Positions 22,378 to 34,741 of a DNA stretch of 64,000 bases are shown here, piece after piece. How positions within the stretch are numbered: the first letter of the stretch is position 1; every line of letters begins with the position of its first letter. The stretch covers positions 375,529-439,528 of the forward strand of contig BOKP01000001.1 of NCBI GenBank assembly GCA_016861045.1. The letters are read 5' to 3'. The DNA comes from Actinomycetes bacterium (GTDB lineage: Bacteria; Actinomycetota; Thermoleophilia; Solirubrobacterales; 70-9). The notes under the pieces are model-generated. The model worked only from the letters and a program-made list of their open reading frames with translations, was not told where the DNA came from and did no database searches. Made by a program: the position numbers and the translations under genes.

Positions 22378-24879
22378 CTACTCCAGCAGGCGGATTTCGT
22401 AGATCGTTGCCCGCCCGCGGTCGATGCCGGTGATCCAGATCAGAAAGTAGCGATGCGGTTCGCCCGCATTCAGGTCGACGATCTGCCTCCCCCGAGACAC
22501 GAGCTCGCGGGTCAGCGGGGGACCCCACGCGGGCAGGTCCGCCGGAGGGGTGTCGAGGTTCCAGCCGTGGATCTCGTAGGTCCGGCCACCACCGCCGGTT
22601 CGGAGCTGCATCCGGCTCGGGGTGACGGGCTTACCGGCATCGACGTAGATCCCAACGCCGTCCTTTGGGATCCCGTCGAGCCCCGCGTAGTAGTCCTCGG
22701 TGCTCCAAGCGGTGTTCGGATCGCCGTCGATCGCCATGCTCGTATCGGCGGCGTGCTCATCGCCGTCCCCACCTGAGCTCGCCGGATCGAAGTCGGTCGC
22801 CGAGTTGAGCGCGATCGACTTCCCGTCCTCGCTCCTCGAGGGTTCTCGCTCGGTGCGACCCCGACCTCCGTGGCTCGCGCCTTCAATGTCGAGGAAGGTC
22901 GCCATCGGGTTGAGCTCCTGTGCCCTTCGAAGTGCCGCCCGGGCCGCACTCGCTCTGCCGAGCAGGGCCCGCTGCCGGCTGAGCACCCACCAAGTCTCCC
23001 AGTTGGTCGGCTCCGCATCCGTGGCGGCATGGGCCACGGCCGTCGCCGCGGCGGGATTGCCAAGTCGCTCATAGGCGAACGCCTGCTGGACAAGCGGGGT
23101 GGCCGCATACGGCTGCAGGCCCGTGGCTTCCTTCGCCCGTGACAGCGACTCGTTGAAATCCCCGGCTCGGAACGCTGCCTGGCTCTCGGCAACGATCCTC
23201 GATCCGTACATCGGAATCGCGGTCACGGCGATGGCTGCGGCGGCGACGATCGTCGCGATGCCGGCGACTGCGATCCGGGTGGCCCTCGAGCCAATCGGCG
23301 CGGGTCGTTCGTCGCCAGCCCGGACGATCGCCGCCGCGATCCACAGGAACGCGATCGGGATCACCGCGATCTCCCAGAGCCAGTCGATCCCCGCCGCGAT
23401 CGTGAACGCGAGTGCCGACGCGGTCGCGGCGGCCATTGCCTGGCGCTCACGGCCTTCGACCAGGAAGGACCTGCGCACGCCCGTGACGAGGGCGAGCAGG
23501 ACGAATCCGCCGATCAGCGTCAGGCCGACGATCCCGAGCTCCCCGAGGACCTCGGCGAACAGCGAGTGCGCGTCGCGGATGAAGCCGGGGATCTCCTTGT
23601 GCTGGCTCCAGAAGTAGACGAACGTGCCCGGCCCGATGCCGTGGATCGGCTCGCTCGTGAACGCCTCGACCGCCCCGGACCAATACTGCCAACGGCCGTT
23701 GCCGCTCGCGCTCGAGAGCCGGTCGGCCTGTGCGCCCGGATGGTCTGGCTGTTTGAAGGTCTCCCAGTCCTCACTCAGACGTTGGGGGCCACCCCCAAGG
23801 AGAAAGCCCAAGATCGCGATTCCCATCGCGATCGCCGCCGCGCCGACAGCGACGCGGCGGGACACCGCGGGCATCTCGGGAAGCCTGCCCCGCCGAACGG
23901 CCCAGCCGATCCCGGCGATCAGCACGCCCACCACCACGCCCCCCCCGATGACCGCCACGAGCATCTGATCGCCTTCTGCCAAAGCGGTCTGATCGACGAG
24001 CCCGGATCGCAGGGAGGGACGTTGCTCAGCCGCCCAGATCAGGCCCGCGCTCGCGACCGCGAGAACGCTCAGCGTCGGGATGAGGGACAGCCGTCGCTCC
24101 GACAGCGCCACGAGCGCGACCACTCCGACGAAGCATGCGATGATTCCGCCGCGCGAGAACGTGTAGTAGGCCGTTAGAGCCATCATCGGAGCCAGGGCCG
24201 CCGCACCGCCGCGGACCGGAAGGGAACGTGCCGTGACCGACAGCCAGACGATCAGCGGCAACCCGACCGCGGTCAGGCCGGCGAGGGCGTTCCAGTAGTT
24301 GAGTGGGTAGGCAAGCCGGCTCTGCGTCGTGGGCAACGCGTCGGCTATCCGAACTTCCGGGAACCAGTTCGGCTCCAGTCGCGACAGCAGCGCAACGGTC
24401 GCGATCGCTGCGCAGCCCGTTCCGACGCCGGCCAGCATCGGCCGGAGCCGATCGCGACCGGCAATCAGCATCGCGAGGAGGAAGATCCCGAGGTAGGACG
24501 CCACGCGGCCAGCCTCGATCATCGTCTGCTCGGCGCTGCTCGACCAAGCCAGTGCTGTGATCGTCCATACCACGAACCCGGCGAGAAGCGTGGTCGCGAT
24601 CCATCCGGTTCGCCCTATTCGGACCGCTGGGTTGATCCCCGCGATCAGCCCGAGCAGGGCGATCCACCAAGCCGCGATCCCGACCTGGCCGCGGACCAGG
24701 GTGTCGAACCCGCCGCTCTCCATCCCCAGGTACACGACGACCGCAAACGGCACCAGAAAGCGTGCTGCCGCCCCCGGTTCGGGAGTATTCCGAAGACGCC
24801 GACGCCCGCCGTGGTCGGTTGGCTTCCCGCGGCTGGAGTCAGGCGCCATGAGGTCGCGCGTCGGCTGCCGCACCCGCAC
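22378..24879 (-). CDS. Wzy/O-antigen-ligase-like membrane protein fused to TPR and discoidin-like domains
   Basis: Numbered from the GTG at 24879, the product is 833 aa. Residues about 40-530 hold roughly a dozen membrane segments and the Wzy_C (O-antigen ligase) region with AYYTFSRGGIIACFVG and the loop EPIHGIGPGTFVYFW ... RDAHSLFAEVLGELG. Residues about 567-659 are TPR-like helices (RAGDFNESLSRAKEATGLQP, AYERLGNPAAATAVA). Residues about 690-833 form a discoidin/F5-8-like domain (MAIDGDPNTAWSTEDYY, KDGVGIYVDAGKPV) like that at the end of actinobacterial MviN proteins. It would polymerise or ligate glycan at the outer face of the membrane, with the tail probably extracellular. The start is uncertain: the frame is open to GTG 24948 and an ATG exists at 24849. 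GTG 24879 is 7 nt from a TATCCT box. Confidence 0.88.
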   Translation of the reverse strand: MRVRQPTRDLMAPDSSRGKPTDHGGRRRLRNTPEPGAAARFLVPFAVVVYLGMESGGFDTLVRGQVGIAAWWIALLGLIAGINPAVRIGRTGWIATTLLAGFVVWTITALAWSSSAEQTMIEAGRVASYLGIFLLAMLIAGRDRLRPMLAGVGTGCAAIATVALLSRLEPNWFPEVRIADALPTTQSRLAYPLNYWNALAGLTAVGLPLIVWLSVTARSLPVRGGAAALAPMMALTAYYTFSRGGIIACFVGVVALVALSERRLSLIPTLSVLAVASAGLIWAAEQRPSLRSGLVDQTALAEGDQMLVAVIGGGVVVGVLIAGIGWAVRRGRLPEMPAVSRRVAVGAAAIAMGIAILGFLLGGGPQRLSEDWETFKQPDHPGAQADRLSSASGNGRWQYWSGAVEAFTSEPIHGIGPGTFVYFWSQHKEIPGFIRDAHSLFAEVLGELGIVGLTLIGGFVLLALVTGVRRSFLVEGRERQAMAAATASALAFTIAAGIDWLWEIAVIPIAFLWIAAAIVRAGDERPAPIGSRATRIAVAGIATIVAAAAIAVTAIPMYGSRIVAESQAAFRAGDFNESLSRAKEATGLQPYAATPLVQQAFAYERLGNPAAATAVAHAATDAEPTNWETWWVLSRQRALLGRASAARAALRRAQELNPMATFLDIEGASHGGRGRTEREPSRSEDGKSIALNSATDFDPASSGGDGDEHAADTSMAIDGDPNTAWSTEDYYAGLDGIPKDGVGIYVDAGKPVTPSRMQLRTGGGGRTYEIHGWNLDTPPADLPAWGPPLTRELVSRGRQIVDLNAGEPHRYFLIWITGIDRGRATIYEIRLLE

Positions 24880-24886
24880 CGATGGG

Positions 24887-24924
24887 AGGATAGGGGTTGG
24901 CTCCGGGCGAGTCGATGTTAGACT
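24887..24924. promoter_or_regulatory. Overlapping divergent promoters
   Basis: On the plus strand, TTGGCT (24897-24902), 16 nt and TAGACT (24919-24924) form a sigma70-like promoter for the 25017 gene. On the minus strand, TATCCT (24892-24887) lies 7 nt before the GTG at 24879, suggesting a leaderless transcript for the Wzy-like gene. The two signals interleave, so the genes may compete for polymerase. Confidence 0.5.
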
Positions 24925-25016
24925 CGCCGTGGACCTGTCATGTCGCACGGCGGGGAAAGCGACCCTCCTCTGCCGCGATCCAGCGAGACACCTGAGAGCG
25001 CCAGGGACGCCCCATC

Positions 25017-25636: not shown

Positions 25637-27241
25637 ATGTTCACCCACGCCTGCGAGGGTGCATCAGACCGGATGAGAACGTCCTCGATGTCATCCGTGA
25701 GTGACGTGTCCGGCGCCCGTAGGCATCAGGTTCTCTCAGGCCTGTTGGCGCTTGCCGTTCTCTGCGCCGCATGGCTGGCACTCGCACAACGGGCGAGCGC
25801 CGCTCGAGACCTCGACGTCGGGTTCGCGGACTATCTCTATGGCTCGATCAACGAGCAGGAGCGGGATCTCTGGCTCGACCGCACGGTGGACGCGAACGCG
25901 GATATCGTGCGTGTCAACCTCTACTGGAGTTCGGTGGCGACGAGCAAGCCGTCAGCCCCGCGAGATCCCAGCGATCCCGCTTACAACTTCCAAATGATCG
26001 ACAACGCCGTCCGTGGTGCCGAGGCGCGCGGTCTGGATGTGGAGTTGACGGTACTCAGCGCTCCGCCGTGGGCGGAGGGAGGGGGGCGGCCGCGCAAGGC
26101 CGAGCCCGGCACCTGGAAGCCGGACCCGCGTGCTTACGGTGACTTCGCCCACGCGGTCGCGGTCCGGTATTCGGGCGCCTTCCCTGCCGCGAGCCCGGCG
26201 CCCTTGCCCGTGGTCGAGTACTACCAGGCCTGGAACGAGACGAACCTGGACACCTATCTCGCGCCGCAGTGGAAAGGGAAGCGAAACAGATCCGCGGACA
26301 TCTACGTACCGCTTCTGAACGAGTTCCATGATGAGGTCAAGGCGGTTAATCCGGAGGCCGAGGTCGTCGCGGCCGGAACCGCGCCTTATGGTGATCCGCC
26401 GGGGGGGCCGAGGCGAACTCAACCCCTGCGCTTCTTCCAGGAGATGCTCTGCCTCGACCGGCGGAACAGGCGGGGGAAGTGCCCGAAGGGGGGTAAGCCG
26501 AAGGCGGACATCTTCGCCCATCATCCGATCAATCGCGAGGACCCGCCACGCGAGAAGGCCGATTTCAAGGGCGATGTGGAGATCGCCGACGTCCATCTGC
26601 TGGCCGAGGCGGTCCGCAAGGCCGAGAAGCTGAACACCATCGCTACTCCCGGAAAGCACCCGCTCTGGGCCGACGAGGTGTGGTGGCAGACGGATCCACC
26701 CGATCGCAAGGAAGGGATCACGCTCGAGAAGCATGCCCGATGGACTGCCGAGGGACTCTATCTGCTGTGGAAGCAAGGCGTTTCGAAGGTGATCTTCCTG
26801 CAGTTCCGCGATGCGGAGTACCGGCGCGGTGAGCATGCTCTGGCCAGCTATCAGACCGGGGTCTACACCTACGGCGGCGAGAAGAAGCCCAGCTACGATG
26901 CCGTCAGATTCCCGTTCGTCACCGAGCGAGAGGGCAGCGGCAACAAGCTCCGCGCATGGGGGGTCGCGCCGGAGTCGGGCGAGTTGATCATCGAGGCCAA
27001 ACGAGGGCGAGGCGGCTATCAGCAGGTCGGCGCGAAGCGGGTGAGCGAGGGCAAGGTGTTCACCGACCGGCTGCGCGCACCCGGTGGCCGGCTGAAGCTT
27101 CGGGCAACGGTCGGCGGCGAGCGAAGCTCGGTTTGGGTCCAAGGGAAGGCAGGGAAGCGAAACCGGAAGGCCGGAAGGCGCGGGGCGCGCCATGAGAGGC
27201 ACCGGGGGCACCACGGGCACGAGGGGCATCGGAGCCGGTAG
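25637..27241 (+). CDS. Secreted glycosidase-like protein (GH39/GH5-like, clan A)
   Basis: The 534-residue product has an N-terminal signal or anchor helix (about residues 33-55, LSGLLALAVLCAAWLALAQ) and a (beta/alpha)8 clan-A catalytic domain. The putative acid/base is Glu201 in QAWNETN and the putative nucleophile is Glu347 in LWADEVWW, with NLYWSSV and FAHHPIN in between. The last 30 residues are Arg/His/Gly-rich (RHERHRGHHGHEGHRSR), an unusual tail. It probably acts outside the membrane on the polysaccharide made by the locus, but the bond cut is unknown. Start ATG 25637; a second ATG at residue 13 is possible. Confidence 0.85.
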   Translation: MFTHACEGASDRMRTSSMSSVSDVSGARRHQVLSGLLALAVLCAAWLALAQRASAARDLDVGFADYLYGSINEQERDLWLDRTVDANADIVRVNLYWSSVATSKPSAPRDPSDPAYNFQMIDNAVRGAEARGLDVELTVLSAPPWAEGGGRPRKAEPGTWKPDPRAYGDFAHAVAVRYSGAFPAASPAPLPVVEYYQAWNETNLDTYLAPQWKGKRNRSADIYVPLLNEFHDEVKAVNPEAEVVAAGTAPYGDPPGGPRRTQPLRFFQEMLCLDRRNRRGKCPKGGKPKADIFAHHPINREDPPREKADFKGDVEIADVHLLAEAVRKAEKLNTIATPGKHPLWADEVWWQTDPPDRKEGITLEKHARWTAEGLYLLWKQGVSKVIFLQFRDAEYRRGEHALASYQTGVYTYGGEKKPSYDAVRFPFVTEREGSGNKLRAWGVAPESGELIIEAKRGRGGYQQVGAKRVSEGKVFTDRLRAPGGRLKLRATVGGERSSVWVQGKAGKRNRKAGRRGARHERHRGHHGHEGHRSR

Positions 27242-27256
27242 CGGACGTCTCGGCCG

Positions 27257-28228
27257 GTGCGGCAGACCCGAGCAACTCGATCCCTGGATCTGATCGTCGT
27301 CCATCACTCCGATGCTGCTTCGACCCGTGAATGCGTCGCGTATGAGCTCGCGCAGCTGAGCCGGCTGGAGGCGGTCGGCCCGGCGCGGGTGACAGTCGTC
27401 GACAACGGCCCTACGGGAGAGCTGGACAACCTCGAGCAGAGCGGGGGCGTGGTGGTTCTTCCAGCTCCTTGCCGCCAGGGGTTCGGGGCGAACGCGACGT
27501 TGGCGGCTCGCGCCTCGCCCGCCGAGTTGCTGCTGTTGCTCAATGACGATGCCCGGATCGACGCCGCCTCCATCGACGCCCTCGTCACCGTCCTCGACGA
27601 TCCCGGGGTCGCCGCTGCCGGGCCGCGGATCGTCGACGGGGAGGGCAGCCCCGCCCCGTCCGCATGGCGCTTCCCTAGCTTGACCGGCGTGATCGCTTTC
27701 GCTCTCAGGCGGAACGGCCCTCCATGGATTCAGTCTCGAGTCGAGGTGACGACGCCGGTCGACGTACTCAGTGGGGCCGCGCTGCTCGTTCGTCGGGGGA
27801 CGTTCGTCGATGAGCTCGACGGGTTCGACCCTGAGTTCTTCATGTTCAGCGAGGATGCCGATCTTTGCCGGCGCCTTGCCGATCGCGGCCTGCGGCGTCT
27901 CCTCGTCCCCGCCGCGACGGCGAGTCACATCGGTCAGGCGTCGACCGCAGGACACGAGCGTCGCCGCGATGTGGAGCAGTGGCGCAGTCGCTCGACCTAC
28001 TGGCGCAAGCATCATTCGGCGCTGGAACGAGTCGCGATCCGCGGTGTCTACGCCGTCGCCTACGCGGTCGGTGCGCTGACCGCGCTGGTTCGGGAGCCGG
28101 CGAGGCGGTCGGCGCGCGATCGGAGCCGGCGCCTCTGGTTCCTGACGGCCGCCGCGCTGCGAACTCCCCCGGGCCCGGGCCTCGCTGAACTGGCCGCCGA
28201 TTGGCGTCCCGATCGTCTACGGCGGTGA
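27257..28228 (+). CDS. Family 2 glycosyltransferase
   Basis: The 323-residue protein (GTG start) is a GT-A fold inverting glycosyltransferase of the rhamnosyl/galactofuranosyl-like group. DLIVVHHSDAAST is near the N-terminus, the DxD-type LLLLNDDARID is at about residues 94-104, and the acceptor region is VDVLSGAALLVRRGTFVDELDGFDPEFFMFSEDADLCRRL. A C-terminal amphipathic or hydrophobic stretch may contact the membrane. It would add one sugar to the lipid-linked unit. It lies 15 nt after the glycosidase gene. Confidence 0.93.
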   Translation: MRQTRATRSLDLIVVHHSDAASTRECVAYELAQLSRLEAVGPARVTVVDNGPTGELDNLEQSGGVVVLPAPCRQGFGANATLAARASPAELLLLLNDDARIDAASIDALVTVLDDPGVAAAGPRIVDGEGSPAPSAWRFPSLTGVIAFALRRNGPPWIQSRVEVTTPVDVLSGAALLVRRGTFVDELDGFDPEFFMFSEDADLCRRLADRGLRRLLVPAATASHIGQASTAGHERRRDVEQWRSRSTYWRKHHSALERVAIRGVYAVAYAVGALTALVREPARRSARDRSRRLWFLTAAALRTPPGPGLAELAADWRPDRLRR

Positions 28229-28418: not shown

Positions 28419-30653
28419 TTGCTAGCCTCGATCGTGGGGTGGTTTCGGGTCCGGCTTCTTGCTGAGATTTTCGGACGGCGCGTCGTGAGAAGCCATCGTG
28501 GCCGCGCTTGGCGCGCCGGCGGGGGCTGTCTGACGTTTGCCGTGCTGATGGCGGTGGCGCCGGCCGCCGCTGCTTCACCGGACCTCGGAGTAGTCTCGAG
28601 GCTTCCCCTCTCCGATGTCGAGCTCGCACGGATGGATGCCGCCGGAGTCGACGTGCTGAGGGTGCCGCTAAGCTGGTCTCGGATCGCCTCGGACTCCGGG
28701 AGTCGCTTTCATTGGCGCCGCGTCGACGATACCGTTCTCGGCGCCGTCGATCATGGCATCGAGGTCATTCCCTACTTGGATGTCCGTCGCTGGCTACGGG
28801 TGGCGCCGGCGGAGAGCGCTCGGGATCTTCGACGGCGCGGATCGAACGCTCGGCCGGGCCTTTGGGAGTGGAAGCGGTTCGTGTCCCACGCGATGTCCCG
28901 CTACGGCACCAGGGGAAGGGTCTGGGGGAACCGTGGCGGCGATGTGGCAACTCCGATCGCGATTACGACTTGGGAGGTGCGGATGGGTCCCGGGTCCTCC
29001 GGCGGTCCGGCGCACCTCCCCGGGACGGAGCTCCGGGGCTACGCGCGGCTGCTTGGGATGGCGGGCCATGCCGCCAGGAGGATCGATCGGGGGGCCGAGG
29101 TCGCCGCCAGCGTCACCGTGGCCCAGTCGCGACGGCGAGGCCCCGGAGCATCCACCCTCGATCGCCTGGTAGCGACGAAGGCGGGCAAGTTCATCGATAC
29201 CGTGACCGTTCGCCCGCCGGCCAGAGCGGGACCTCGGCTGAGCCGTGGGATCGCCCGCGTTCGGCGAAGCCTCGACCGTGGTGGGCTCGACGACGCGAGC
29301 ATCGTGATCGCTCCGATCGGCTGGTCATCCGGCAGCCGTCCGCGGCGGCGGTGGGCCGGTCGGCAGGGGCAGGCCGATCACCTCCGTCGCAGCGTCAAGA
29401 GGATCGATCGCAGCGCCTCCGCCTGGGGGGCCGAGACGGTCATCTGGTCGGCGTGGCGGGATCGGCCCGGCCGAGGTTGCCGCTGGTGCCGGAGATCGGG
29501 CCTGCTCGACCGCACCGGCAAGGTCAAGCCGAGCTTCCGCGCTTTCAAGCGGCTCGCGGAGCAGGATCACGTGGCGGGCGAGGTTCCGGGCGGAGCGTTC
29601 TACGGTGTGACGCCCGACGGCGAGTTGACGGAGGCGGACATCCTAACGATGGACGAGTCCGGCGTCGATGTCGTGCGGCTGGTGATCTCCTGGCCGGGGT
29701 TGCAACCAGGAGGATCGGGCCCGATCGATTGGCGGGGCCTCGACCACCGGGTCGGGTCGCTGGCGGAGCGGGGAGCAGCGGTGCTCCCGCAGCTCATCGG
29801 CTCGCCTGGCCGAGAAGGCCCTCCGACCGCCGGTGAGCTCCCTGAGTGGGCCAGGTTCGTCCATGCCGCTGTTGCCAGGTACGGTGCGGGCGGCACCTTC
29901 TGGCAGGGTTTCTCGGCTGAGCATCCGGACCTCGCGCCGCGTCCCCCGGAGGTCTGGCAGGTGTGGAACGAGCAGAACAACCGTCGGTTCTGGAATCCGG
30001 AGCCATCACCCGAGGCGTACGCGAAGCTCCTTCATGCAAGCGCCGCCGCGATCCGGGCCGCGGACCCACGTGCTGAGGTGATGCTCGGCGGCATGTATGA
30101 GTACGCGGCAGGGATGTCCGCCACCGTGTTCCTCCGGGAGCTTTACGCGATTTCCGGAGCGGGGGACGATTTCGACATTGCGGCCGTCCATCCCTATGCG
30201 CGTGGAAACGCCGGGATCGCCTCCCAGATCGAGGAGGTGAGGGATCTGTTGAACCTGTTCGGTGAACATGGCAAAGACATCTGGATCACCGAGCTCGGGT
30301 GGTCTTCGGTTCCGATCGATGAGTCTGCTGGAGGCGTCTACGCGGAGCTCTCCAGGGACGAAGCCGGCCAGGCGGAGGCGTTGGAGGCCGCTTACGAGAT
30401 GCTCCACGCCAACCGCTCGCGATGGCGGCTGCGGGGGGTTGTCTGGTATTCCTGGCGCGATGCGGCCGAGCCGGTCTGCATCTTCTGTCAGCACACGGGG
30501 CTGCTCCGGATCGACGGCTCGCCGAAGCCTTCGCTGGCGGCGTTCGCCGGGCTGGCGTTGAGTGCCGCCCCCCATGAGGTACCGATTGACCTCGACGCTG
30601 GGCCGATCCGGGTAATGGCCACAACGCCGGAGCCACCCGGGAGCTGCCGCTAA
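28419..30653 (+). CDS. Secreted tandem glycosidase-like protein, first repeat catalytically degenerate
   Basis: The 744-residue product (from TTG 28419) has a hydrophobic signal segment (about residues 36-53) and two homologous (beta/alpha)8 repeats, about 55-380 and 392-712. In repeat 2 the clan-A residues are intact: acid/base Glu518 in WQVWNEQNN and nucleophile Glu625 in WITELGWSS. In repeat 1 the equivalent places read TTWEVRMG and VIAPIGWSS, so the nucleophile is Pro299 and the acid/base motif is gone. Both repeats end alike: IWSAWRDRPG ... KVKPSFRAFKRLA versus VWYSWRDAAE ... SPKPSLAAFAGLA. The first repeat may bind rather than cut glycan. A GTG at 28434, 5 nt after a TAGCCT box, is an alternative start. 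Confidence 0.87.
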   Translation: MLASIVGWFRVRLLAEIFGRRVVRSHRGRAWRAGGGCLTFAVLMAVAPAAAASPDLGVVSRLPLSDVELARMDAAGVDVLRVPLSWSRIASDSGSRFHWRRVDDTVLGAVDHGIEVIPYLDVRRWLRVAPAESARDLRRRGSNARPGLWEWKRFVSHAMSRYGTRGRVWGNRGGDVATPIAITTWEVRMGPGSSGGPAHLPGTELRGYARLLGMAGHAARRIDRGAEVAASVTVAQSRRRGPGASTLDRLVATKAGKFIDTVTVRPPARAGPRLSRGIARVRRSLDRGGLDDASIVIAPIGWSSGSRPRRRWAGRQGQADHLRRSVKRIDRSASAWGAETVIWSAWRDRPGRGCRWCRRSGLLDRTGKVKPSFRAFKRLAEQDHVAGEVPGGAFYGVTPDGELTEADILTMDESGVDVVRLVISWPGLQPGGSGPIDWRGLDHRVGSLAERGAAVLPQLIGSPGREGPPTAGELPEWARFVHAAVARYGAGGTFWQGFSAEHPDLAPRPPEVWQVWNEQNNRRFWNPEPSPEAYAKLLHASAAAIRAADPRAEVMLGGMYEYAAGMSATVFLRELYAISGAGDDFDIAAVHPYARGNAGIASQIEEVRDLLNLFGEHGKDIWITELGWSSVPIDESAGGVYAELSRDEAGQAEALEAAYEMLHANRSRWRLRGVVWYSWRDAAEPVCIFCQHTGLLRIDGSPKPSLAAFAGLALSAAPHEVPIDLDAGPIRVMATTPEPPGSCR

Positions 30654-30723: not shown

Positions 30724-31860
30724 ATGGGTAGCAGACAACGATCGGACGCCGGGCGGATCCGGCTCTTGATGCTCGGCCCGAGCCCCGAGCATCCCGGCGG
30801 GATCACCAAGGTCGTTGATTCGTGGCGAGAGGGAGGGCTCGGGGACCTCGTGAGCTTGCGCGAGATCCACACGAGCCGACTGGACGACCCGTGGCCTCGT
30901 CAGGCGGTCCATGCGGTCGCCGCGCTGATCGCGCTTTTCTGGGTCCTGGGACGCCGGCAGGCCGACGTCGTCCACCTGCACGTCAGCACGGGCGGAAGCC
31001 TGCTCCGGAAGCTGGCGGCGGCGATCCTCGCTCGCCTGTTTGGCGTTCCCTACGTAGCCCAGATCCATTCCGGTCAGTACGAGGAGTGGGTGGCGCACAA
31101 CACGATCGCCCGAACGTGCTCCCGCCTGCTGTTCTCGAACGCGGCCATCACCGCCGTCGTCTCCGAGCGTTGGGTCGGGCTGGCTCGCCGGATCGGGGGG
31201 AAGGAGGTTCTGGTGCTGCCCAACGCACTGTCCCTTCATGAGCGCGAGGTTCTGGCGGCGGCCGCTGCGGCAGTTTCGACCGAGTCGACCGGACCCCCGG
31301 TTCTCCTCTACTACGGGCGCTGGTCTCCGGTCAAGGGTCCCGATCGCATCGCCGCCGCGCTGACCACGGCTCCCCCGGCCGGCTACGAGGTCCGCTTGTT
31401 TGGCAACGGCGATCGCATCTGGCTCGAGGACACCTTCGCGGCGCTGCCGCCCGACAACGTGGTGATCGGCGGCTGGATCCCGCTCTCAGCCAAAGCGGCC
31501 GAGCTCGCCACCGCCACCGCCCTGGTCGTTCCTTCCCGCTTCGAGGGGTTCGGCCGGGTGTTGATAGAAGCCCGGGCGGCCGGAGCACCGGTCGTGGCGA
31601 GCGCCGTCGGCGGCGTGGTGGATGTGCTCAATGGCTACGACCGGGCGCTGCTGGTGCCGGCGGGCGACGACCGTGCACTTCGCTCGGCGCTTGAGCGGGT
31701 GGTCAGCGGTGACTGGCCCCCGCCCGCTGGTCGATCCGGACGCGTTCCGGATCTGCCCGACAGGTACTGGGCCGAGCGGGTCGTCGCCAAGCTCGCGGCG
31801 GAGCTGGAGCGTGTCACGGGGCCGGCAGCTGCCGGCGCGGGGGGGCATGCGAGCGGATGA
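30724..31860 (+). CDS. Family 4 glycosyltransferase
   Basis: The 378-residue GT-B enzyme has PSPEHPGGITKVVDSW at the N-terminal nucleotide fold. A conserved YYGRWSPVKGPDRIAAAL and the E-x7-E motif of GT4 enzymes, PSRFEGFGRVLIEARAAGAPVVAS (about residues 262-285), follow. It is cytoplasmic or membrane-associated and would extend the lipid-linked repeat unit. Donor unknown. The stop overlaps the next start by 4 nt (ATGA). Confidence 0.94.
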   Translation: MGSRQRSDAGRIRLLMLGPSPEHPGGITKVVDSWREGGLGDLVSLREIHTSRLDDPWPRQAVHAVAALIALFWVLGRRQADVVHLHVSTGGSLLRKLAAAILARLFGVPYVAQIHSGQYEEWVAHNTIARTCSRLLFSNAAITAVVSERWVGLARRIGGKEVLVLPNALSLHEREVLAAAAAAVSTESTGPPVLLYYGRWSPVKGPDRIAAALTTAPPAGYEVRLFGNGDRIWLEDTFAALPPDNVVIGGWIPLSAKAAELATATALVVPSRFEGFGRVLIEARAAGAPVVASAVGGVVDVLNGYDRALLVPAGDDRALRSALERVVSGDWPPPAGRSGRVPDLPDRYWAERVVAKLAAELERVTGPAAAGAGGHASG

Positions 31861-33335
31861 TGCTCCGCCGAATCCTCATCATCGGCGGCAGCGGTGCGGT
31901 CGCAGCCGCGGCTCTGGCGGTCGTTCAGATCCGGGTCGGCTCCCTGTTCGGAACCGGAGCCGAGCTCGACGCGTTCTTCGTCGGTGCCGCCCTGCCTTCG
32001 GTCCTTCTCGCCGTCGGCGCCGGAGCGATCTTCAACATCGTCATCCCCCGGTTGCCGGAGGGGCCCGGCGGCGCAGCCGCGGCCGGCCGGTTCGCAGCGC
32101 TCGCCGCCACGTCGGGCGCCCTCGTCACGGCGGCGATCGCCCTGGCCGCCGCACCGATCGTGGATGTGATCGCTCCGGGGCTCGATGGGGACACGGCTCG
32201 GGAGGCGGCCGCCGTCCTCCGCATCTACGCGATCACGATTCCTCCGACGTGCGTCGCTTTTGTCTTCTCGGGATTCGCCTACTCGATCGACCGCTCCTAC
32301 GTCTCCGGAGCATCCGGCACGTTGTACGCCCTTGCCTGGCTTGGCCTGCTGTTCGTGCCCGCCTTCACCGAGAGCGTTGAGCGCGTAGCAGTAGCCGGCG
32401 TTCTCGCCACGATCGTGCAGGTCACGTCGGCGTTCGCCCTTGCCGCTTCGCCTGGCGCTGTGCCGTGGCCCATTACGCGCAGGCTTCGGATCTCGCAGGC
32501 GGCGATGGCGGCCGCCGCAACGGTGCTCGGGGCGACGTTGCTCAGCCGCGTCGGCCTGCTGCTCGATCCTCTCTTCGGATCACTGTTGGAGGCCGGCTCC
32601 GTTTCTCAGCTCACCTACGCCAGCCGGATCATGCTTCTCGCCGTGTTCATCAGCGGACAGGGGCCGGCCTTCGCGTTGCTCGTCGTCGGCCGTCGGCGGG
32701 ACGACGGCTCGGACGCCGACGCACGAATCGGCGTCGTGGTGCCGCTGCTGCTTTCGCTCGGCGCTGCCGCCGTGTTCGCGATTTGCGGCCCGGGCCTCGC
32801 CCAGCTCCTCCTCGCCCGCGGCGAGCTGACCACGGCCGACGCTCGGGAGATCGGTGAGCTGATGCGGATCTACGCGCCGTCGATCTGCGTGATCGCTCTC
32901 GTCTGGGCGCTCGAGGCCATCCTCTACGCGTCGCAGCGGGCGCGTGAGGTGCTCATGCGCGTGCTCGCCGGGCTGCTGGTCAACATGGTCGCCTCGGCCG
33001 CCTTCGTGGCCCTGCTCGGAGTCGACGGCAGGCCGATCGGAGTCTTCGTGGGGATGAGTGCTCAGCTCGTTCTTCTCCTCGTTCTACTCGGTGGTGACCC
33101 GCGTGTCACCGTGCTGTCCGAACCACGAACGCGTGACTACGCGTTCGGGCTGCTGGTCACCACGGTCGCTGTCACGTCGATCGTTTACCTTGCCTGCGGC
33201 GCGCTCACGTCCCTAAGCATCGCGGGTGTGGTGGCTGCCCTCGTCGCGGCGCTCGTCGTCCTCGTGTTCGTCGTCAGGTACGGCCGCAACGCGGTCGCGC
33301 TCCGGGACGCCGACGTAGGATCGCGTAGCCGATGA
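31857..33335 (+). CDS. MurJ/MviN-like or Wzx-like lipid-linked oligosaccharide flippase
   Basis: The 492-residue protein has about 12-14 membrane helices. It starts like MurJ-family flippases (VVQIRVGSLFGTGAELDAFFVG, AGAIFNIVIPRLPE), with FSGFAYSIDRSY and SQLTYASRIMLLAVFISGQG further on. Since the gene sits among glycosyltransferases and a Wzy-like gene, it most likely flips the undecaprenyl-linked repeat unit rather than lipid II. It overlaps both neighbours by 4 nt, indicating a tight operon. Confidence 0.9.
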   Translation: MMLRRILIIGGSGAVAAAALAVVQIRVGSLFGTGAELDAFFVGAALPSVLLAVGAGAIFNIVIPRLPEGPGGAAAAGRFAALAATSGALVTAAIALAAAPIVDVIAPGLDGDTAREAAAVLRIYAITIPPTCVAFVFSGFAYSIDRSYVSGASGTLYALAWLGLLFVPAFTESVERVAVAGVLATIVQVTSAFALAASPGAVPWPITRRLRISQAAMAAAATVLGATLLSRVGLLLDPLFGSLLEAGSVSQLTYASRIMLLAVFISGQGPAFALLVVGRRRDDGSDADARIGVVVPLLLSLGAAAVFAICGPGLAQLLLARGELTTADAREIGELMRIYAPSICVIALVWALEAILYASQRAREVLMRVLAGLLVNMVASAAFVALLGVDGRPIGVFVGMSAQLVLLLVLLGGDPRVTVLSEPRTRDYAFGLLVTTVAVTSIVYLACGALTSLSIAGVVAALVAALVVLVFVVRYGRNAVALRDADVGSRSR

Positions 33336-34741
33336 ACTCCACCTCAGCCCGGATCGTCCCGCCGGTGGTCGTCGCGGCCCTCGGGGTGCTTCTCGCCGTG
33401 GTTCTGGCTGCCGGCTCGTTCCTGACGACGGGCTCGTCGCTGCCGATCATGGGACTGGGTCTCCTGCTCGTCGTCGTGGCCGGTGCGGTCTACCTCTGGG
33501 GCGCGGAGGCACCTCTGCTCGGGGCGATCGTGATCGTGCCGCTGATCCCGAACACCACCATCGGCTTCGCGGCTGGAGGGCTGGGGGGCCAGTGGGGTGA
33601 GCTCCGTGCCGTCCTGCTCGTACTCCTGCTCGGGGTGTACCTCGCCTGCTTTCCGCGCGGGGTCCCGAGGCTCCCGCGCGTCCTGATCGGTGTGACGGGA
33701 TCGCTCGTCGCTCTCGCCGGGGCGGGGATGTTCGCGGCCGTCACGAACGGAGGGAGCTCTGTCGGGTTCCTCGCGGAAGCAGCGCACGGGGCCGGCCAGC
33801 CGCTGATCTACGCACTCTTGATCGTTGCCGTTGCAGCCGCGCTTCAGAGCCGAGAGGGTGCTCGGGAGCGCCTCCTCGCCGCGGTCTGCATCGCGATCCT
33901 CGGCCAGGCGATCGTCGTGGTGGCCGGGCTCGCCACCGGAGCGGCCTATGACCCGGTTCGGCAGATCACGCGGGCGCAGGGGACCGTCGGCGCCAACTTC
34001 CTCAGCGCGATGGCGATGCTCGGGTTCTTCGCCGGCCTCTCGCTACGGTCGGGATCGACCGCCCGGCGGTTCCGTTCGCTGGGGATCGTGACCGCGGTAG
34101 CGGCGCTCGCCATCATCGCCGTCGCCACGACTCGAGGCGGTCTGGTCGGTGTCTTCATCGGCGTTGCCTACGTGGTCCTAACAGGGGTGGACGCACGGGC
34201 CCGGATCGCGACGGTCGCGGCGCTCGCCGTCTTGATGGTCGCGTTGACGACGATCCCGCAGGTTTCCGGTCTCTGGTCGGAGCGACTCGACTGGCGGGGC
34301 GGGATCACCGACTTCGATCGTGTCGCCACTTGGATCTCGGGAGTCCGGATGGGGCTCGATGATCCGCTCGGCGGACTTGGCAACGCAGGGGTCGCCGAGG
34401 GCGTCGCGGAGGTTTCGCGCTACCAGCAGACCCCGGCGGGCCCGACCAGCGTCGTCCCTCACAACATCTGGATTCTCGCGTTCGCTGAAGCGGGTATCGC
34501 CGGCCTGCTCATGTCGCTCGTCTTCTCGTTCTTCTTCTGCCTCGCGATCTGGCGTCGGCCTCGCCGCCGCAGCCTCCCCGACCGGTTCCTTGTCGGTGGG
34601 CTGCTCGGCCTGATCGCCGTCTCGCTGATCAACAACCTGTTCACCCACCCCGAGGTGATGCTCCCCGGATTCGTCTTCCTCGCCGTCGTCTGCTCCGGGG
34701 CACTCGCCGGGAGGCGGCTCGGCCAACCAGTGGTCTCCTGA
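33332..34741 (+). CDS. Second Wzy/O-antigen-ligase-like membrane protein
   Basis: The 469-residue protein has about 12 membrane helices and the Wzy_C/ligase loop pattern: VATTRGGLVGVFIGVAYVVLTG, then a large outside loop with VRMGLDDPLGGLGNAGVAEG and VPHNIWILAFAEAGIAGLLMSL (His in HNIWI as in ligases). It lacks the TPR and discoidin parts of the 22378 protein. One of the two may polymerise and the other ligate the glycan to the wall. The ATG overlaps the flippase stop by 4 nt. Confidence 0.88.
   Translation: MNSTSARIVPPVVVAALGVLLAVVLAAGSFLTTGSSLPIMGLGLLLVVVAGAVYLWGAEAPLLGAIVIVPLIPNTTIGFAAGGLGGQWGELRAVLLVLLLGVYLACFPRGVPRLPRVLIGVTGSLVALAGAGMFAAVTNGGSSVGFLAEAAHGAGQPLIYALLIVAVAAALQSREGARERLLAAVCIAILGQAIVVVAGLATGAAYDPVRQITRAQGTVGANFLSAMAMLGFFAGLSLRSGSTARRFRSLGIVTAVAALAIIAVATTRGGLVGVFIGVAYVVLTGVDARARIATVAALAVLMVALTTIPQVSGLWSERLDWRGGITDFDRVATWISGVRMGLDDPLGGLGNAGVAEGVAEVSRYQQTPAGPTSVVPHNIWILAFAEAGIAGLLMSLVFSFFFCLAIWRRPRRRSLPDRFLVGGLLGLIAVSLINNLFTHPEVMLPGFVFLAVVCSGALAGRRLGQPVVS

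What the first reader, a model, noticed from the sequence alone, without database searches (positions are those of the whole stretch)
28419..30653. Tandem glycosidase with a dead first repeat
Two homologous (beta/alpha)8 repeats are fused. The second has an intact acid/base Glu518 (WNEQN) and nucleophile Glu625 (TELGW). The first has Pro299 at the nucleophile place and lacks the WNE motif, while framework residues such as GWSS and W-x-W-R-D are kept. This looks like duplication followed by conversion of one copy into a binding or regulatory module.
Basis: seen in the sequence. Interest (0 to 1): 0.7.

Follow-up and report, generated by a model that had tools for sequence, protein, structure and literature searches.

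The report
Glycosidase fused to its dead copy
A soil-type actinobacterium makes a secreted sugar-cutting enzyme, related to the biofilm enzyme PslG, that carries in front of it a second, folded but catalytically dead copy of the same kind of barrel; the loss is clear, but this fused protein was found in one species only and the dead half's job is unproven.

Summary
Residues 56-379 and 394-712 are homologous (28% identity, blastp 1e-31) PslG-like (GH39, clan GH-A) barrels. Repeat 2 has the full pocket: Glu518 and Glu625 match PslG Glu165 (acid/base) and Glu276 (nucleophile). In repeat 1 these are Gly190 and Pro299. Seven of nine pocket residues are gone (RRMGGRPPW against RWNENHYEW), while the conserved framework is mostly kept (17 of 20 at 90% conservation; Fisher p<0.001). 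AlphaFold gives repeat 1 a confident barrel (pLDDT 87, pTM 0.88); its best Foldseek match is PslG. So it is a pseudo-glycosidase.

Repeat 1 is not shown to be repeat 2's closest relative; fusion of two head-to-tail neighbour genes, arrays of which are common in relatives, is at least as likely as internal duplication. Sugar contacts of subsite -1 are lost too, so old-pocket binding is unlikely. No orthologue of repeat 1 was found in 232 genomes of the order or 396 sampled from the phylum: a singleton in a variable exopolysaccharide locus, so the conservation test fails. Precedents exist (Klotho, lactase-phlorizin hydrolase, non-catalytic GH5 modules). Verdict: real, a new variant of a known kind, moderate interest.

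The parts
28419..30653 (+). whole coding sequence of the two-barrel protein (744 codons from TTG; a GTG start at 28485 is as likely)
28485..28574 (+). likely signal peptide (GTG start, RSHRGRAWRAGGGCLTFAVLMAVAPAAAA), residues 23-52
   Evidence: read from the sequence; no signal-peptide program was run
28584..29555 (+). repeat 1, dead PslG-like barrel, residues 56-379
   Evidence: family profile 242 bits; AlphaFold pLDDT 87, pTM 0.88; Foldseek best match PslG, 1e-15
28986..28988 (+). Gly190, place of the acid/base Glu
29313..29315 (+). Pro299, place of the nucleophile Glu
29556..29597 (+). short linker between the barrels (42 bases, 14 residues, no second signal peptide)
29598..30554 (+). repeat 2, intact PslG-like barrel, residues 394-712
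   Evidence: family profile 364 bits; phmmer to PslG 5e-14; modelled mostly at pLDDT above 90
29970..29972 (+). Glu518, acid/base (PslG Glu165)
30291..30293 (+). Glu625, nucleophile (PslG Glu276)
25637..27241 (+). second, single-barrel GH39-like protein of the same cluster (WNETN, ADEVWW apparently intact)
   Evidence: blastp to repeat 2 5e-8; family member in the tree
27257..28228 (+). glycosyltransferase family 2
   Evidence: PF13641
30724..31860 (+). glycosyltransferase group 1 (GT4-like)
   Evidence: PF00534
31857..33335 (+). MurJ/Wzx-type flippase
   Evidence: PF03023
33332..34741 (+). Wzy/O-antigen-ligase-type polymerase
   Evidence: PF04932

Best explanation
The protein is a secreted PslG-like (GH39, clan GH-A) retaining endo-glycosidase (repeat 2) of an exopolysaccharide cluster, carrying at its N terminus a folded pseudo-glycosidase (repeat 1) of the same family. 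Shown by computation: the homology, the exact loss of the pocket in repeat 1, a sequence that still fits the fold, the intact pocket of repeat 2, and the location among glycosyltransferases, a flippase and a Wzy-type polymerase. Inferred: repeat 2 cuts or trims the polysaccharide made by this cluster, as PslG does for Psl; repeat 1 does no chemistry and serves repeat 2 as a non-catalytic partner. I think the likeliest role is that repeat 1 holds or positions repeat 2 (packing support and folding help, as in Klotho and lactase-phlorizin hydrolase, possibly with contact to the polymer, cell surface or assembly machinery through its Arg-rich face), rather than binding a sugar in the old pocket. 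This specific role I put at about 0.4; the dead-plus-live architecture at about 0.9. It most likely arose by fusion of two head-to-tail neighbour genes, with loss of catalysis in the first.
For: Repeat homology. Pocket loss against 69 aligned relatives; acid/base Glu in 118 of 121 and nucleophile Glu in 122 of 123 family domains with residues there, repeat 1 the only one lacking both. Framework kept: at columns 90% conserved, 17 of 20 non-pocket residues kept against 1 of 8 pocket residues (Fisher 0.0007). Confident barrel, PslG as best match (VIA Z 27.0, rmsd 2.9 over 279 residues, to GH39 5jvk). Repeat 2 to PslG. Gene neighbourhood. PslG hydrolysis supports Psl production (PMC6813494). Separate head-to-tail family genes with gaps of about 104-170 bases in relatives, one pair in the same frame with a single TGA between.
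Against: No orthologue, so no direct test of purifying selection on repeat 1 since the loss. Long branch (2.06 against 0.96 for repeat 2), GC at second codon positions raised to 0.62 (0.50-0.55 in repeat 2 and seven neighbour genes) and Arg 17% would also fit relaxed constraint. The relative arrangement of the barrels is not predicted reliably (full model pTM 0.57). No activity of repeat 2 or role of repeat 1 is tested.
Confidence: 0.62

Rival explanations
1. Repeat 1 was converted into a carbohydrate-binding module that grips the polysaccharide in the former active-site cleft and feeds repeat 2.
For: Non-catalytic GH5 modules that bind polysaccharide are known (Rsi24C-GH5, PMC3526467). Repeat 1 is basic (+35) and repeat 2 acidic (-18); Arg188 and Arg265 now stand in the old pocket, which could suit an acidic polymer.
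Against: The residues that hold the -1 sugar in PslG are gone together with the catalytic ones: Asn164->Met189, Phe319->Ser344 by alignment, His/Tyr->Arg/Pro. Arg at lost conserved positions (4 of 22) is no commoner than in repeat 1 as a whole (17%). Family domains are basic on average (+10.6, sd 15). The loop at the old acid/base position has pLDDT under 50 in the model.
Confidence: 0.25
2. Repeat 1 is an evolutionary leftover: one barrel of a fused gene lost its activity, is tolerated, and is drifting.
For: Singleton, long branch, raised GC2 and GC-rich residues at the edge of the family range; high-GC frames stay open easily.
Against: Framework residues are retained selectively and the fold is predicted with high confidence; Trp content, the C-x-x-C pair and most core residues are kept; GC3 is as in neighbours. 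Part of the retention could still predate the loss.
Confidence: 0.22
3. Repeat 1 is an enzyme with another mechanism or substrate using other side chains (for example Asp121, Glu186 or Asp348).
For: Asp121 at the end of strand 3 and Glu186 on strand 4 are candidates by position. Glycosidases without the usual pair exist in other families (own knowledge).
Against: No carboxylate on strand 7, none at either canonical place, and the other pocket residues are gone too.
Confidence: 0.05

Closest known systems
PslG of Pseudomonas aeruginosa (GH39, PDB 4zn2, 5bx9, 9g17)
   Same: Nearest solved relative of both repeats; same catalytic pair in repeat 2; same kind of locus, an exopolysaccharide biosynthesis cluster
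   Different: PslG has one GH39 barrel and no dead copy; repeat 2 lacks PslG's Arg331/Asp332 contacts (C-x-x-C region instead, by alignment), so the substrate is probably not Psl
Klotho proteins (KL1-KL2, clan GH-A GH1-like barrels; 8toh and 5w21 came up)
   Same: Two tandem clan GH-A barrels joined by a short linker, catalysis lost, used as scaffold
   Different: Animal membrane receptors, GH1 not GH39, no beta-glucosidase activity reported; here one barrel keeps the full pocket
Lactase-phlorizin hydrolase
   Same: Tandem homologous GH1 domains with an N-terminal profragment that acts as intramolecular chaperone (PMC6412902)
   Different: Animal, four domains, proteolytic removal of the profragment; that its first domains lack catalytic residues is own knowledge
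Non-catalytic GH5 modules (GH5_30, Rsi24C-GH5; PMC3526467)
   Same: Clan GH-A barrels that lost the catalytic machinery, some on long branches
   Different: Not fused in tandem to an active copy of the same family in the cases described; other family

Membership tests
PslG-like GH39 (repeat 2) | sequence similarity to PslG over the barrel | tested here: met
   phmmer 5e-14; family profile to PslG 9.8e-49. Pfam's GH39 model itself is below its cut-off (15 against 26 bits)
PslG-like GH39 (repeat 2) | acid/base and nucleophile Glu after strands 4 and 7 | tested here: met
   Glu518 and Glu625 align with PslG Glu165 and Glu276
PslG-like GH39 (repeat 2) | retaining endo-glycosidase activity | not testable with these tools
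   needs enzyme assay
PslG-like GH39 (repeat 1, as an enzyme) | both catalytic Glu | tested here: not met
   Gly190 and Pro299
PslG-like GH39 (repeat 1, as a fold and by descent) | (beta/alpha)8 barrel and profile match | tested here: met
   242 bits; pLDDT 87 and PslG best match
tandem pseudo-glycosidase architecture of the Klotho kind | two tandem clan GH-A barrels with catalytic residues lost in at least one | tested here: met
   likeness of architecture only, no shared descent of the tandem claimed
tandem pseudo-glycosidase architecture of the Klotho kind | protein-partner or chaperone role of the dead barrel | not testable with these tools
   needs binding and truncation experiments
carbohydrate-binding module | measured glycan binding | not testable with these tools
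   needs binding assay; the old sugar contacts are lost

The most novel reading that the evidence does not exclude
A bacterial counterpart of the Klotho/lactase-phlorizin hydrolase principle: a PslG-type exopolysaccharide endo-glycosidase that carries a dead barrel of its own family as a built-in regulator or docking domain, coupling polymer trimming to the synthesis machinery.
Probability: 0.25. Interest if true: 0.6.

Novelty: new variant of a known kind. Interest (0 to 1): 0.4.

Why it matters
Why exopolysaccharide clusters encode glycosidases is still debated. A natural fusion of a dead and a live PslG-like barrel gives a way to separate catalysis from scaffolding or docking in this enzyme class. 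Among about 150 related reading frames it is the only tandem and the only one without both catalytic residues, which makes it a clean case of a pseudo-enzyme next to its active sister. It is limited by being found in one species.

Tried and rejected
Frameshift decay: other frames do not match the family. Chance repeat: rejected by shuffles. Other Glu residues in the pocket of repeat 1: none on strand 7. Orthologues of the tandem or of repeat 1: none in 61 relatives, 50 family genomes, 232 order genomes, 396 sampled phylum genomes, nor by peptide pattern in genome contigs. Other tandem reading frames: none among 150 family ORFs. Sister grouping of the repeats: neither supported nor rejected. 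A special Arg pocket: Arg at lost positions is no more frequent than expected from the domain's composition. Promoter and terminator scan: nothing beyond chance, uninformative. Pfam and NCBIfam give only weak clan GH-A matches for repeat 2 and nothing useful for repeat 1. No paper found on such proteins in Solirubrobacterales.

Full report
What is there. The ORF at 28419-30653 (+) encodes 744 residues without interruption. The likely start is GTG 28485 or TTG 28419; either way a basic stretch, a hydrophobic run and ...APAAAA|SPD look like a signal peptide (read by eye). Two barrels follow, joined by a 14-residue linker. They align over about 330 residues at 28% identity (1e-31), some 36 standard deviations above shuffles.

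Family. Pfam gives only clan GH-A matches (Cellulase, GH53, Glyco_hydro_cc, GH39). Against solved structures repeat 2 matches PslG of P. aeruginosa (5e-14), and a profile of the local family matches PslG at 9.8e-49 and GH39 enzymes next. By that alignment Glu518 = PslG Glu165 and Glu625 = PslG Glu276, the experimentally critical pair (PMC6813494; PMC11912335).

The dead repeat. Over 69 diverse relatives plus repeat 2, nine pocket positions read RWNENHYEW with few departures; repeat 1 reads RRMGGRPPW. In a wider set of 129 non-redundant domains the acid/base is Glu in 118 of 121 and the nucleophile in 122 of 123 with residues there; repeat 1 is the only one lacking both, while two others lack only the acid/base. 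The loss is concentrated in the pocket: 7 of 8 pocket against 3 of 20 other residues at columns of 90% conservation or more (Fisher p = 0.0007). The pocket list was drawn up from clan GH-A knowledge after the alignment had been seen, so the p value is indicative. AlphaFold with a 71-row alignment gives a barrel with pLDDT 87 and pTM 0.88; Foldseek ranks PslG first (1.0e-15), and VIA-align gives Z 27.0 (rmsd 2.9, 279 residues) to a GH39 enzyme, tied with GH1 enzymes. The aligned family helps AlphaFold towards the family fold, so this shows compatibility rather than proof. Of the carboxylates of repeat 1 only Asp121, Glu186 and Asp348 lie near the pocket ends of strands, none on strand 7. Also gone are the partners of PslG Asn164 (Met189) and of its one stacking aromatic Phe319 (Ser344) (repeat 1 residues and the sequence). 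Hence repeat 1 should neither hydrolyse nor hold a sugar at -1 in the old way.

Origin. Relatives in the same family and order carry many separate PslG-like genes, often in head-to-tail arrays, many with about 104-170 bases between the domains, stop, start and signal peptide included. In one relative (L092) two such genes lie in the same frame with a single TGA between. The window's pair has 42 bases between domains and no stop. Among 150 family ORFs it is the only one with two domains. Repeat 1 scores higher to genes of other species (107-109 bits) than to repeat 2 (80.5 bits). The tree puts the repeats apart, but repeat 1's branch is very long and a forced pairing is not rejected (AU 0.16). 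So gene fusion and internal duplication both remain open, fusion being at least as likely.

Conservation. No orthologue of repeat 1 appeared in the genus (two other genomes, both fragmented), 50 family genomes, 232 order genomes or 396 genomes drawn from the phylum. The polymerase gene of the same cluster has no counterpart at 1e-30 in 40 relatives either, so the locus as a whole is variable, as is usual for exopolysaccharide clusters.

Surroundings. The gene sits between a GT2 (27257-28228) and a GT4-like gene (30724-31860), followed by overlapping MurJ/Wzx-type and Wzy_C genes; upstream is another GH39-like single barrel (25637-27241), and further off a second Wzy_C gene and a DegT aminotransferase. 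In P. aeruginosa PslG and its hydrolytic activity support Psl production (PMC6813494) and shape biofilm development (PMC9075953). A like role for repeat 2 is an inference.

Role of repeat 1. It is Arg-rich (17%, above the family maximum of 15%), net +35, while repeat 2 is -18; but family domains average +10.6 with sd 15, so charge alone is not remarkable. GC at second codon positions is raised (0.62; 0.50-0.55 in repeat 2 and seven neighbour genes) and GC3 normal, consistent with faster evolution of surface residues over a kept core. Known dead barrels of this clan act as co-receptor scaffold (Klotho, PMC8465397), intramolecular chaperone (lactase-phlorizin hydrolase profragment, PMC6412902) or polysaccharide sensor (Rsi24C-GH5, PMC3526467). 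With the -1 site dismantled I favour a scaffold/docking role over an old-pocket binding module, at low confidence.

Verdict. Observation confirmed and sharpened; interpretation partly supported; new variant of a known kind; interest 0.4.

Noticed in passing
window 25637-27241 (+): Second, distant GH39-like barrel in the same cluster with catalytic Glu pair apparently intact (WNETN, ADEVWW) and a His/Arg/Gly-rich tail; a 41% identical paralogue lies elsewhere in the same genome (G000:C4:465732-467171, L147).
   Followed up: partly
L089:1465-2364 (-) and L102:7504-8496 (-): Two single-barrel relatives keep the nucleophile but have WNA or WNS in place of WNE, i.e. lost the acid/base only; another possible pair of altered enzymes.
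   Followed up: no
L090 and L091 (G020:C90): Array of eight or more PslG-like genes within 25 kb of one relative; the family is strongly expanded in this group (16-17 matches in that genome).
   Followed up: partly
L092:1661-3805 (+): Two PslG-like genes in the same frame separated by one TGA and a new signal peptide, a natural picture of the state before fusion.
   Followed up: yes
window residues 354/357 and 687/690 of the protein (29478-29489 and 30477-30488), and family-wide: A C-x-x-C pair after strand 8, present in about 80% of relatives and kept in the dead repeat, replaces the PslG Arg331-Asp332 region; disulfide or metal site unknown.
   Followed up: no
window 22378-24948 (-) and 33332-34741 (+): Two different Wzy_C (polymerase/ligase) genes in one cluster, on opposite strands.
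   Followed up: no
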